64,000 nt of DNA from Asticcacaulis sp. MM231. GTDB lineage: Bacteria; Pseudomonadota; Alphaproteobacteria; Caulobacterales; Caulobacteraceae. A program made the position numbers and the translations under genes. A model generated the notes under the pieces. The model did no database searches. It was not told the origin of the DNA and saw only the letters and a program-made list of their open reading frames with translations. Of this stretch, positions 17,388 through 49,259 are shown in pieces (within the stretch, counting starts at the first letter, position 1; the number at the start of each line of letters is the position of its first letter). The stretch spans positions 620,001 to 684,000 of the forward strand of contig NZ_OZ075108.1 of assembly GCF_964186625.1 (NCBI RefSeq), written 5' to 3'.

Positions 17388-17402
17388 GTTCACTTTATGT
17401 TC
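17388..17402. promoter_or_regulatory. LexA (SOS) box of dinB
   Basis: GTTC (17388-17391), 7 bases, GTTC (17399-17402): an exact match to the direct-repeat LexA site of alphaproteobacteria. It lies 18 bases before the dinB ATG and overlaps the likely -10 region (TTTATG 17394-17399, with TTGGCA at 17371-17376 as -35, spacer 17). LexA bound here would block dinB transcription until DNA damage. Confidence 0.88.
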
Positions 17403-17420: not shown

Positions 17421-18515
17421 ATGACCATGGACGACAACAAGACAGCCCTGCAGAGAAAGATCATCCACGTCGATATGGACGCCTTTTTCGCGTCGGTCGA
17501 ACAGCGCGATCATCCGGAACTGCGTGGCAAGCCGGTGGCGGTCGGCGGCGGTTCGGAGCGCGGAGTGGTGGCGGCGGCCTCTTATGAAGCGCGCAAGTTT
17601 GGCGTTCATTCGGCCATGGCCTCCGTGACGGCCAAGCGCAAATGTCCGGAGCTGATTTTTGTGCGCGGTAATTTCGAGACCTACCGCGCGGTATCAAAGC
17701 AAATTCATGAGGTCTTTGCCGAATATACGCCATTGATTGAGCCGCTATCGCTCGATGAGGCGTATCTCGATGTGACCGAAAACCTGAAAGGCATCGCCTC
17801 TGCCACTCAGATCGCCGAAGAGATCCGCGAGAAAATCCACGCCGCAACGCATCTCACCGCCTCGGCCGGTGTGTCCTACAACAAGTTTCTTGCCAAGCTG
17901 GCTTCGGATCAGAACAAGCCTGATGGTCTTTTCGTCATCAAGCCAGCCATGGGGCCATCCTTCGCCGCTTCGCTGCCAGTCAAGAAATTCCACGGCATTG
18001 GCCCGGCGACGGCGGCGAAGATGAACCGGCTCGGTCTCTATACCGGCGCCGATATCCGCGCCCAGTCGCTCGATTTTCTCGAACAGCATTTCGGCGTGTC
18101 GGGGCGATACTATTATGGCATTTCACGCGGTATCGACCATCGCCAGGTGCGACCCGACCGTGAGCGAAAGTCGATCGGTGCCGAGAATACCTTTTTCATC
18201 GACACCACGGATTTCGATACCGCCTGGGGTTTTCTGGAACCCTTGATCGACAAGGTGTGGGCCTATGTCGAGGCGAAGCAGATCAAAGGGCGGACTGTGA
18301 CGCTGAAGGTCAAGTTTTCGGATTTCCGCATCATTACCCGCAGTCGTTCAGGCCTTGTGCCGGTAGCGAGCCGTGAGCAACTGGCGCAGTTCACGCGCGT
18401 CCTGCTGGAAGGTGTGTTCCCGGTCGGCAAGGGCATACGGTTGCTGGGTGTGTCGATGTCATCCCTGGGAGAGAAAGCCGAAGAGACGCAGGCGCAGTTG
18501 AGCCTGTCGCTGTAA
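17421..18515 (+). CDS. dinB: DNA polymerase IV (Y family)
   Basis: 364 residues. Catalytic carboxylates are visible: D18 in HVDMDAFFASVEQRD and D112-E113 in SLDEAYLDVT. The thumb helix-hairpin-helix KFHGIGPATAAKMNRLG (around 190) and little-finger domain follow. The C-terminus ends in QLSLSL, which resembles the beta-clamp-binding tail of the enterobacterial enzyme. It performs error-prone translesion synthesis. The SOS box at 17388-17402 indicates LexA control. The second in-frame ATG at 17427 is an alternative start. Confidence 0.95.
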   Translation: MTMDDNKTALQRKIIHVDMDAFFASVEQRDHPELRGKPVAVGGGSERGVVAAASYEARKFGVHSAMASVTAKRKCPELIFVRGNFETYRAVSKQIHEVFAEYTPLIEPLSLDEAYLDVTENLKGIASATQIAEEIREKIHAATHLTASAGVSYNKFLAKLASDQNKPDGLFVIKPAMGPSFAASLPVKKFHGIGPATAAKMNRLGLYTGADIRAQSLDFLEQHFGVSGRYYYGISRGIDHRQVRPDRERKSIGAENTFFIDTTDFDTAWGFLEPLIDKVWAYVEAKQIKGRTVTLKVKFSDFRIITRSRSGLVPVASREQLAQFTRVLLEGVFPVGKGIRLLGVSMSSLGEKAEETQAQLSLSL

Positions 18516-47090: not shown

Positions 47091-47105
47091 GAACATATAT
47101 AGAAC
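47091..47105. promoter_or_regulatory. LexA (SOS) box of the FAN1-DnaQ fusion gene
   Basis: GAAC (47091-47094), 7 bases, GAAC (47102-47105): exact alphaproteobacterial LexA site in the other orientation. It ends 6 bases before the ATG at 47112 and overlaps a plausible -10 (TATAGA 47098-47103, with TTGTTT at 47075-47080 as -35, spacer 17). With that promoter the mRNA would begin about two bases before the ATG, i.e. nearly leaderless. Confidence 0.85.
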
Positions 47106-47111
47106 AGTCCT

Positions 47112-49259
47112 ATGGCCCGTGACTTCATAACCCTGCCGCCGCTCTATTACCGAGATCATTTTCTGGAGATGATCGGCTTCGTGACGTCGGTCTATGGCGC
47201 CATGCTGGGTGAGGACGAACAGGCCTTTATCAGCCGTTTCGGTGAACTGGATGAATGGGCGCAATGCCTCTATATCCGCATGGTCAACCGCAAAAAGGTG
47301 GTCTTCTCGCCCGGTGACCTGGCCTATCAGGAGATCGGCGACCTGTGGGGTGGGCTCGATCAGTTACGCGAACATGGCTTCATCCGTGAGATTTGCGCGC
47401 AGGATTATCGCGCCTGTCTCGACGATCGCGCCAAGCCCGATCTGCACGATCTGGCGAAGGATCATGGGCTTGAGGTCAAATCCGGCTGGTCAAAACCAAA
47501 GCTCGCCGACCATCTCCACGCGCATCTGCCCTATGACACCTTCGCCTCCGGCTTCCTGCGTTCGGATCATCTTGTGCCGGAACACAAGGATACGCTCGGC
47601 TTCCTGCTCTATCTCTATTTCGGTCGCTTAAGCGACAACATGACCAGCTTCGCCCTGCGTGATCTCGGCGTGGTATCGGTGAAGGCGCGCGACAGCTATC
47701 AGGCGCGCTTCGATAATCTGCAAAGTGCGCGGGCCGGCTATTTTTATGCGCGGCAGTTACGGGCGTTGAAGCAGGGCGCGGACGCCAGAGCGCTGGCCGA
47801 TAGCATTGACCAGTGGCCGTCGGCGGAGAGCGAAGCCAATCAAGGTTTGCGTGATACCTTGCTGCACCAGATCGGCCTGGTGTTTGAAAGGGGCAAGGAT
47901 ACGGCTCGCGCGCTCGACATCTATGCCCGTTCCGGCGCTTTCGAAAGCCACGAGCGCAGTGTTCGCCTTCTGTATGCTATGGGCGCGACCGAAGAGGTCA
48001 AGGCGCGGCTCGAAGCCATGCTGCAAAGCCCGGCGCATGATGAGGAATATATCTTCGCCAGCGATTTCTATGCCCGTAAGTTCGGCCAGCAACGCATGGG
48101 GATCTTCACCCATCTGCTGCGTTCGGCCGAGACGCTAGAGGTCGATGAACTGTTCCGCGGCGATGCCGAGTACGCCGCCATGCAGGCCTATGCCAAACAG
48201 GGCTGGACACCGTGGCACAGCGAAAATGATCTGTGGGCGGTGCTTTTTGGCCTGTTGTTCTGGGAAGAACTGTTTGAAAGCGCCGCAAGCTTTGGTTCGG
48301 ATTTCGATTACCGGCCACAGAGCCTGAAAGATCGCACCTTCCACACGCGCTTTACAGATCGGATCGCGCAAAAACTGGCTTGGGCGCGCGCAGGTGAGGT
48401 GGCGGATTTCGTGCGCGATACGATCCGGCGTCACCATGGTGAAAGCAACGGGCTGTTTGTCTGGTTCAAGGGCCTGGAAGACCTGATCACTACCTTCCTA
48501 AACGCCGCCCCGCGCGACGCTGTGGCGGGTTTGCTGCAAAACATGGCCGAGGATTTTTATGGTTTACGCGATGGTTTCCCCGATCTGGTGCTGATCCGCG
48601 ACGACGCGGTGCGCTTTGTCGAGATCAAGGGCGAGGGTGATTGCGTGCGCCGCCACCAGTTGGCGCGGCTGAACCTGCTGCGCGGTTTGGGGTTCGCGGC
48701 CGATATCTGCCGGGTCAGTTACCGCACCGATCCTGATCAGGTTTATGTTGTGGTCGATGTCGAAACCACCGGTGGCCGCCCGCCTAATGATCGCGTCACC
48801 GAGGTCGGCGCGGTCAAGGTGCAGCACGGTCGCGTCATCGGTGAGTGGTCGTCCCTGATCAATCCGGAAAAACGTATCCCCCAGTTCATCACCCAACTGA
48901 CGGGAATCAGCAACGATATGGTGCGTGATGCGCCTAAATTCGCCGATATTGCCGACGACTTCGCAATGTTTATCGAAGGCGCCATATTTGTGGCGCATAA
49001 TGCGACATTCGACCATGGGTTTATCGCCAGCGAGTTTCGTCGGTTGGAACGGTGTTTTCGCCACCCCAAATTGTGCACCTGCGCCTCGATGCGCAAACAT
49101 TACCCCGGCCACGCCTCCTACGGCCTGGCCAATCTGTGCCGTGCGTTCAATATCGAGCTGAAAAATCACCATCGCGCCCTGGCGGATGCACGCGCTGCCG
49201 CCGAACTGCTTCATCTGATTAATGAAAAACGCCTCGAAGGCTTGTCATACTGCGCTTAA
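47112..49259 (+). CDS. FAN1-like VRR-NUC nuclease fused to a DnaQ-type 3'-5' exonuclease
   Basis: 715 residues. The N-terminal FAN1-type winged-helix region has YYRDHFLEMIGFV and WAQCLYIRMVNRK. A SAP-like helix pair (about 113-138) and a helical TPR-like middle (about 220-430) follow. The VRR-NUC domain (about 475-545) has FPDLV with D491 and EIKGEGD with E504 and K506, the PD-(D/E)xK core. Then comes a DEDDh exonuclease (about 546-712) with D549/E551 in VDVETTG, D634 in HNATFDHG, and H687 and D692 in HHRALADA. Bacterial FAN1 is about 560 residues; the extra length is the exonuclease. Family role: structure-specific 5' flap cleavage in interstrand crosslink repair. A LexA box abuts the start. 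Confidence 0.88.
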   Translation: MARDFITLPPLYYRDHFLEMIGFVTSVYGAMLGEDEQAFISRFGELDEWAQCLYIRMVNRKKVVFSPGDLAYQEIGDLWGGLDQLREHGFIREICAQDYRACLDDRAKPDLHDLAKDHGLEVKSGWSKPKLADHLHAHLPYDTFASGFLRSDHLVPEHKDTLGFLLYLYFGRLSDNMTSFALRDLGVVSVKARDSYQARFDNLQSARAGYFYARQLRALKQGADARALADSIDQWPSAESEANQGLRDTLLHQIGLVFERGKDTARALDIYARSGAFESHERSVRLLYAMGATEEVKARLEAMLQSPAHDEEYIFASDFYARKFGQQRMGIFTHLLRSAETLEVDELFRGDAEYAAMQAYAKQGWTPWHSENDLWAVLFGLLFWEELFESAASFGSDFDYRPQSLKDRTFHTRFTDRIAQKLAWARAGEVADFVRDTIRRHHGESNGLFVWFKGLEDLITTFLNAAPRDAVAGLLQNMAEDFYGLRDGFPDLVLIRDDAVRFVEIKGEGDCVRRHQLARLNLLRGLGFAADICRVSYRTDPDQVYVVVDVETTGGRPPNDRVTEVGAVKVQHGRVIGEWSSLINPEKRIPQFITQLTGISNDMVRDAPKFADIADDFAMFIEGAIFVAHNATFDHGFIASEFRRLERCFRHPKLCTCASMRKHYPGHASYGLANLCRAFNIELKNHHRALADARAAAELLHLINEKRLEGLSYCA

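What the first reader, a model, noticed from the sequence alone, without database searches (positions are those of the whole stretch)
47091..49259. SOS-controlled fusion of a FAN1-like crosslink nuclease with a DnaQ-type exonuclease
Seen: one 715-codon frame carries FAN1 winged-helix/SAP/TPR-like parts, a VRR-NUC core (D491, E504, K506) and a complete DEDDh exonuclease (D549, E551, D634, H687, D692). A perfect GAAC-N7-GAAC LexA box ends six bases before the ATG. Known: FAN1 cuts 5' flaps next to interstrand crosslinks and bacterial versions usually stop after VRR-NUC. Inference: one polypeptide could incise (5' flap) and then resect from a 3' end, a self-contained SOS-induced crosslink repair enzyme. 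If conserved, this is an undescribed architecture.
Basis: partly seen in the sequence, partly recalled or inferred. Interest (0 to 1): 0.78.

Follow-up and report, generated by a model that had tools for sequence, protein, structure and literature searches.

The report
SOS-controlled FAN1–DnaQ double nuclease
A bacterial repair enzyme joins, in one protein, the nuclease that frees crosslinked DNA strands (FAN1) and a second nuclease predicted to chew from the opposite end, and the switch sequence in front of it suggests it is turned on by DNA damage.

Summary
The 715-codon frame is a full-length bacterial FAN1 followed, with no real linker, by a complete DEDDh exonuclease. The joint has the same length in 65 of 65 aligned relatives. 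FAN1 residues E371, D491, E504, K506 and exonuclease residues D549, D634, H687, D692 are invariant in all 65; E551 is in 64.

The fusion is a distinct group, not a local accident: 23 of 25 Asticcacaulis genomes, 20 of 117 genomes of a Bradyrhizobium-like genus (one a fragment, two frame-broken), a few other Alphaproteobacteria, and many members of one gammaproteobacterial family. Ordinary FAN1 (about 540-600 codons) lies across a well-supported branch.

The LexA box is conserved. GAAC-N7-GAAC precedes the gene in 23 of 23 genus genomes that have it and in 20 of 21 Bradyrhizobium-like loci; gammaproteobacterial members carry CTGT-N8-ACAG-like boxes instead (26 of 31, at most one mismatch). Best reading: an SOS-induced, two-polarity nuclease for interstrand crosslinks. 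Activity and induction are not shown. A SAP domain is not found by profile. The library searches found no description of it.

The parts
47091..47105 (+). LexA box GAACATATATAGAAC (GAAC-N7-GAAC)
   Evidence: read; conserved in 23 of 23 genus genomes that have the gene; AT-rich boxes of the same pattern lie at or before recA, dinB, recN, ruvC, rmuC, yifB and radA in this genome
47112..49259 (+). FAN1-DEDDh fusion gene, 715 aa
47142..47384 (+). FAN1_HTH domain (residues 11-91)
   Evidence: Pfam PF21315, E 6.7e-18; 65 of 65 relatives
47442..47510 (+). region (residues about 111-133) that aligns with solved bacterial FAN1 where its SAP domain is expected (position of SAP in that chain is recalled); no SAP profile match
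   Evidence: alignment; negative
48222..48224 (+). E371, Glu invariant in fused and ordinary FAN1 (its role as a metal ligand is recalled)
   Evidence: 65 of 65 fused, 19 of 19 ordinary
48414..48719 (+). VRR-NUC nuclease domain (residues 435-536), catalytic D491, E504, K506
   Evidence: Pfam PF08774, E 3.2e-14; residues 65 of 65
48714..48743 (+). fusion joint, residues 535-544, with D540-P541
   Evidence: 10 residues long in 65 of 65; D540 64 of 65, P541 64 of 65
48747..49211 (+). DEDDh exonuclease domain (residues 546-700), catalytic D549, E551, D634, H687, D692
   Evidence: Pfam PF00929, E 4.5e-38; residues 65 of 65 except E551 64 of 65

Best explanation
The gene encodes a bifunctional repair nuclease that LexA represses and DNA damage induces. 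The N-terminal FAN1 half binds a branched or crosslink-stalled junction and cuts the strand with a 5' flap, then trims 5' to 3'. The DEDDh half, held at a fixed distance by a linker-less joint, degrades from a 3' end towards the lesion (3' to 5'). Together they would unhook an interstrand crosslink and open a gap from both sides within one polypeptide. Shown: both domains, intact catalytic residues, constant joint, conservation across the group, and conserved SOS boxes of the right type in two classes. Inferred: both activities, polarity, cooperation, crosslinks as the physiological substrate, and actual induction.
For: Domains: (RNase_T, FAN1_HTH and VRR_NUC each in 65 of 65; the 65 are a choice out of 76 usable proteins). 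End-to-end homology to solved bacterial FAN1 (9-540, E 3.5e-29) and, for the C-terminal part, to PolC and DinG exonucleases. Catalytic residues and constant joint. Fused against ordinary FAN1: one change on the tree of 50 rows, support 100. Alpha-type LexA boxes: 24 of 24 genus loci, 20 of 21 Bradyrhizobium-like loci, 2 of 3 other alpha loci. Gamma-type boxes with at most one mismatch: 26 of 31 fused loci, against a shuffled mean of 1.34; perfect in 9 of 31. Six later loci all have one. Known SOS-type genes of the same genome carry similar boxes. Function by analogy: SaDinG, a DEDDh exonuclease fused to a helicase, is needed for mitomycin C and formaldehyde resistance and needs its nuclease (PMC12345164, abstract and passages). 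MrfB of B. subtilis is a DEDDh mitomycin-repair exonuclease (PMC11194089, start of abstract in the listing). FAN1 orthologues cut 5' flaps and show 5'-3' exonuclease activity (PMC4103454, passages).
Against: No activity, substrate or induction has been measured. The AlphaFold model was too poor to place the two active sites (mean pLDDT 49). The DEDDh-domain tree did not make the fused exonucleases strictly one group in the quick search (2 changes; 1 not excluded). The gene is patchy (20 of 117 genomes of g286) and broken in some genomes, so it is dispensable. 5 of 31 gamma fused loci lack a box within one mismatch. The GAAC-N7-GAAC pattern as such is not enriched genome-wide.
Confidence: 0.62

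Rival explanations
1. The DEDDh part is not a partner in crosslink excision but a general 3'-end cleaner. It would trim 3' flaps or mismatched ends, left by FAN1 cutting or by SOS polymerases, before ligation.
For: DEDDh exonucleases commonly proofread or trim 3' ends (general knowledge); the nearest solved relatives include PolC and DnaQ proofreading domains. dinB in the same window is also behind a LexA box.
Against: The constant joint and co-conservation with FAN1 suggest coupling to FAN1 substrates. DEDDh enzymes MrfB and SaDinG act in mitomycin repair.
Confidence: 0.22
2. The fused enzyme mainly resolves stalled forks or recombination intermediates, or restricts foreign DNA, and crosslink repair is secondary.
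For: Single VRR-NUC domains of bacteria and phages act as junction resolvases (PMC4103454, passages); the gene is patchy and sometimes on plasmid records. PADLOC candidate-defence models match the DEDDh half only.
Against: No phage record matched the FAN1 part. No neighbour recurs beside the fused gene across lineages in the neighbourhoods compared (their genes were clustered, not scanned for defence families). SOS boxes are conserved.
Confidence: 0.1
3. One half is catalytically silent in the cell and serves only for binding.
For: None found, apart from one relative of 65 with Gly at E551.
Against: The FAN1 and DEDDh catalytic residues are invariant or nearly so in 65 proteins, some only 35% identical to P0001.
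Confidence: 0.06

Closest known systems
Bacterial FAN1 of known structure (PDB 4r89, 5y7g; that these are Pseudomonas FAN1 is recalled)
   Same: homologous over residues 9-540, catalytic residues included; ordinary FAN1 genes of the genome scans share FAN1_HTH and VRR_NUC and E371, D491, K506 in 19 of 19
   Different: ends after VRR-NUC; ordinary FAN1s are about 24-28% identical and lie outside the fused group. In two loci (L115, L118; families f201, f194) a DinG/XPD-like helicase gene overlaps FAN1; no member of that helicase cluster was seen near the fused genes. The SAP profile matches the FAN1 in L118, not the fused proteins.
Human FAN1
   Same: VRR-NUC region 351-535 matches (E about 1e-12 to 4e-14)
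   Different: the best chain matches end with VRR-NUC (8s5a, 4ri8 and others); no match to the DEDDh part in these chains
SaDinG-type exonuclease-helicase (PDB 8zef, named 3'-5' exonuclease DinG; that it is SaDinG is inferred)
   Same: best-scoring solved DEDDh domain for the profile (E 1.7e-45); a DEDDh exonuclease fused to a crosslink-repair enzyme
   Different: partner is a helicase and the exonuclease is N-terminal; reported as not LexA-regulated (PMC12345164, passages)
MrfB (B. subtilis mitomycin repair exonuclease)
   Same: DEDDh exonuclease in mitomycin C repair (PMC11194089, start of abstract)
   Different: encoded beside a helicase, MrfA (same source); that it lacks a FAN1 part is recalled
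PolC / DnaQ proofreading exonucleases
   Same: same domain family
   Different: serve replicative polymerases (general knowledge); 15 DnaQ-like ORFs of the family form a separate branch (that they are DnaQ is inferred from the match and length)

Membership tests
FAN1 | FAN1 HTH domain at the N-terminus | tested here: met
   PF21315 E 6.7e-18; 65 of 65
FAN1 | VRR-NUC domain with PD-(D/E)xK residues | tested here: met
   PF08774; D491, E504, K506 in 65 of 65
FAN1 | SAP domain | tested here: inconclusive
   no profile match, but the region aligns with bacterial FAN1; the ordinary FAN1 in L118 does match FANC_SAP
FAN1 | TPR-like helical middle | tested here: inconclusive
   end-to-end alignment with 4r89; TPR profiles match at most 4 of 65 members per model
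FAN1 | 5'-flap endonuclease, monomeric, no Holliday junction cutting | not testable with these tools
   needs purified protein
DEDDh (DnaQ-like) exonuclease | RNase_T domain over its full length | tested here: met
   PF00929 positions 1-164 of 164; 65 of 65
DEDDh (DnaQ-like) exonuclease | D, E, D, H, D catalytic set | tested here: met
   D549, D634, H687, D692 in 65 of 65, E551 in 64 of 65
DEDDh (DnaQ-like) exonuclease | 3'-5' exonuclease activity | not testable with these tools
   needs purified protein
LexA (SOS) regulon | class-appropriate LexA box near the start (consensus patterns recalled) | tested here: met
   24 of 24 genus loci, 20 of 21 Bradyrhizobium-like loci, 2 of 3 other alpha loci; gamma-type box (at most 1 mismatch) in 26 of 31 fused gamma loci
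LexA (SOS) regulon | box like that of known SOS genes of the same genome | tested here: met
   GAACAWW-type boxes at recA, dinB, recN, ruvC, rmuC, yifB, radA; two others of nine genes scanned are not repair genes
LexA (SOS) regulon | LexA binding and damage induction | not testable with these tools
   needs bench work
SaDinG/MrfB-type crosslink exonuclease systems | DEDDh exonuclease partnered with a helicase | tested here: not met
   no helicase domain in the protein; the helicase cluster seen beside two ordinary FAN1 genes is not near the fused genes. Helicases elsewhere in the genome were not searched.

The most novel reading that the evidence does not exclude
An SOS-induced FAN1 subfamily in which a rigidly attached DEDDh exonuclease supplies the opposite polarity. 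One polypeptide could unhook an interstrand crosslink and excise on both sides of it without a helicase or UvrABC. The unit was assembled once, spread between Alpha- and Gammaproteobacteria, and in each class sits under that class's own LexA box.
Probability: 0.45. Interest if true: 0.78.

Novelty: new variant of a known kind. Interest (0 to 1): 0.64.

Why it matters
How bacteria process interstrand crosslinks apart from UvrABC is poorly settled (general knowledge), and the FAN1 enzymes studied so far have no attached 3'-5' exonuclease. This group offers one protein in which incision and resection from both ends can be tested together, with separable active sites. That its box type follows the host class, while the protein stays the same, is independent evidence that selection keeps it as a DNA-damage enzyme.

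Tried and rejected
Chance box: rejected. The raw motif is not enriched genome-wide (109 against 134 in the reversed control), but conservation before this gene is far above shuffles.

Two separate genes or a read-through artefact: rejected. The single frame and the constant joint are present in 65 of 65 aligned relatives. In some genomes the frame is broken: G114, G511, G892 and G866 (sequencing error not excluded). G858 stops near a contig edge. These five were left out of A1.

Local oddity of one strain: rejected.

Long ordinary open frames that might hide further fusions (G711, G668, G1385): the match ends within 1 to 7 codons of the frame's end, so no exonuclease follows.

Conserved partner gene: none recurs across lineages in the 24 neighbourhoods compared (19 of fused and 5 of ordinary genes). 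In two of them (L101, L117) my ORF choice let a longer overlapping frame hide the FAN1 gene. Close relatives do share neighbours.

Phage origin: no phage record matched the FAN1 part. The viral contig scan returned one hit covering residues 45-76 only, not followed.

Other phyla were not sampled, so absence of the fusion outside Pseudomonadota is not claimed. The single genome-contig scan used patterns close to the query and found only Asticcacaulis.

Full report
WHAT IS THERE. The frame 47112-49259 (+) encodes 715 residues. Pfam finds FAN1_HTH at 11-91, VRR_NUC at 435-536 and RNase_T at 546-700, each above its cut-off. By sequence the first 540 residues align end to end with a solved bacterial FAN1 (4r89: query 9-540, chain 18-558, E 3.5e-29), and the rest with the exonuclease domains of PolC, DinG and DnaQ. 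A profile of 65 relatives strengthens both matches (E 1.7e-65 to 4r89; 1.7e-45 to the DinG exonuclease 8zef). NCBIfam gives 32 families; the 25 shown all match the C-terminal part. Deposited records call relatives 'exonuclease domain-containing protein'.

WHERE IT COMES FROM. The nearest named record is Asticcacaulis benevestitus (94% identical). The genome has three contigs and 4.65 Mb. The names Bradyrhizobium and Pseudoalteromonas used here come from plasmid records that hold close relatives, so they are likely, not certain, for groups g286 and f190.

HOW WIDESPREAD. Genus: 23 of 25 genomes have it; G859 and G080 do not. Of the 23, one is frame-split (G114) and one is cut near a contig edge (G858). 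Family: none of the 103 genomes of other genera gave a full-length match (119 searched, 16 of them of the genus; their best hits, E 1.8e-24 or weaker, lie in the exonuclease part). Class: of 385 genomes, the own genome and three others (G163, G451, G476) match over the whole FAN1 part, in frames of 718-769 codons; two more have weak partial hits. Phylum: 55 of 398 genomes match; 11 are of the fused type (one of these, G511, broken) and 44 are ordinary FAN1 or partial. Genus g286: 20 of 117 have a match, one only a fragment and two frame-broken. Family f190: 51 of 147 match; 45 are of fused length, one is broken (G511) and five are ordinary. Of those 45, 35 were seen to contain the exonuclease; the other ten are judged by frame length alone. 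Gammaproteobacteria at large: 21 of 369 match; besides f190, family f372 has three fused genes. Order of g286: 6 of 199 match, of which one is a new fused gene (G1602) and two are weak. Other phyla were not searched.

ONE GROUP. A tree of the FAN1 part (50 rows chosen out of 96; quick IQ-TREE, no bootstrap) puts 36 fused rows on one side and 14 ordinary FAN1 rows on the other: one change, support 100. The root is not known. Fused proteins have their own residues around the VRR-NUC core: Arg at 513 and 514 in 31 of 31, where 19 ordinary FAN1s have Gln at 513 and Asp (18) or His (1) at 514. Over 65 rows, R513 is in 61 (Gln in 4) and R or K at 514 in 64. A tree of the exonuclease domain alone (58 rows) needs two changes for 'fused', without firm support; one origin is not excluded. 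The joint between the last VRR-NUC strand and the exonuclease (535-544) has ten residues in 65 of 65, with D540 and P541 each in 64. A constant joint speaks for one fusion event and for rigid coupling (inference).

CATALYSIS. E371, D491, E504, K506, D549, D634, H687 and D692 are in 65 of 65, E551 in 64. In 19 ordinary FAN1s, E371, D491 and K506 are in 19 and E504 in 18. Both halves are therefore expected to be active; this is not shown.

SOS CONTROL. The box GAACATATATAGAAC ends six bases before the ATG. Alone this would be weak, as the motif is not enriched genome-wide. Conservation is decisive. The box lies in -150 to +20 of 24 of 24 genus loci; these are 23 genomes, all that have the gene, plus one duplicate record (L069 equals L122; L070 stands for G014, whose own locus L121 has the same box). 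It is also in 20 of 21 g286 loci (L146 lacks it) and 2 of 3 other alpha loci; the third has one at -169 on the other strand. Shuffled means are 0.18, 0.26 and 0.04 loci. In 31 gammaproteobacterial fused loci (32 less the broken L078), 9 have a perfect CTGT-N8-ACAG and 26 have one with at most one mismatch (shuffled means 0.02 and 1.34). Six further loci each have the box of their class: L194 and L200 alpha; L191 and L201 gamma perfect; L192 and L193 gamma with one mismatch. In this genome AT-rich boxes of the form GAACAWW lie 88 bases before recA and before dinB, recN, yifB, radA and a DNA-repair radical SAM gene; at ruvC and rmuC the box overlaps the first ATG of the frame. I picked these by eye: nine genes behind boxes were scanned out of 30 loci, and two of the nine are an MFS transporter and an EgtC-like protein, not repair genes. 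SOS control is not a mark of the fusion alone: 10 of 19 ordinary FAN1 loci have a gamma-type box with at most one mismatch, all ten in family f194 and none in the nine others. One paper lists the P. aeruginosa gene PA1865, which it ties to FAN1 literature, as damage-induced but outside three known regulons (PMC12796719, passages). The TATATA inside the window's box could be its -10 element, which would make the message nearly leaderless (inference from the sequence).

SURROUNDINGS. No gene recurs beside the fused gene across lineages; close relatives share neighbours. Two ordinary FAN1 genes (L115, L118) overlap a DinG/XPD-like helicase gene; that helicase cluster was not seen near the fused genes. 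I infer that different FAN1 lineages may have recruited different helpers: a helicase in an operon, or an exonuclease in the same chain.

HOW IT PROBABLY WORKS. FAN1 orthologues, the Pseudomonas one included, cut 5' flaps and show some 5' to 3' exonuclease activity (PMC4103454, passages). DEDDh exonucleases act from 3' ends. Two of them serve crosslink or mitomycin repair: SaDinG, where nuclease-dead and helicase-dead variants both fail to restore resistance (PMC12345164, abstract and passages), and MrfB (PMC11194089, start of abstract in the listing). The economical model is that FAN1 incises on the 5' side and the exonuclease resects the other side. Rivals are general 3'-end cleaning, fork or junction processing, and a silent half.

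NOVELTY. In the held open-access library no paper holds both 'VRR-NUC' and 'DnaQ' or both 'bacterial FAN1' and 'exonuclease domain'. The listings show no title or abstract start that describes the fusion; only three of all listed papers were opened, in passages (PMC4103454, PMC12796719, PMC12345164), and searches showed 15 of 78 and 20 of 194. Two structural papers on bacterial FAN1 are not held. Subscription literature was not searched, so 'not in print' is not claimed beyond this. Both domains and both regulatory boxes are known kinds; the combination is a new variant.

CHECKING. On re-reading the calls I corrected the description of the SOS boxes of other genes, the tree sampling, and names that rest on recall or on plasmid records. 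One check was added.

Noticed in passing
window 17388-17402 and 17421-18515: A second LexA box (GAACATAAAGTGAAC, minus-strand orientation) lies just before dinB (DNA polymerase IV), so the window holds two genes behind such boxes.
   Followed up: partly
L118:5021-8982 and L115:2664-6697: Two ordinary FAN1 genes overlap a DinG/XPD-like helicase gene, suggesting an operon. All ten sampled FAN1 loci of L118's family (f194) have an SOS-like box; the gene in L115 (f201) has none.
   Followed up: partly
L112:4410-7849 (G511): The fused gene is broken into a 105-codon and a 610-codon piece with about 1.3 kb holding two other frames between them, as after an insertion.
   Followed up: no
L100 (G114), L217 (G892), L218 (G866): Copies of the fused gene interrupted by a frame break (sequencing error not excluded); the gene appears dispensable.
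   Followed up: no
L194 and L197-L199 (G1602): One genome holds an intact fused gene and partial matches with stops on another contig, like a decayed second copy.
   Followed up: no
L005:1518-2747: A putative DNA modification/repair radical SAM gene (TIGR03916) also sits behind a GAACATA-type box.
   Followed up: no
L064 and L067 (G476); L144 and L160 (G895): Two genomes of g286 carry two distinct fused genes each, each with its own LexA box.
   Followed up: no
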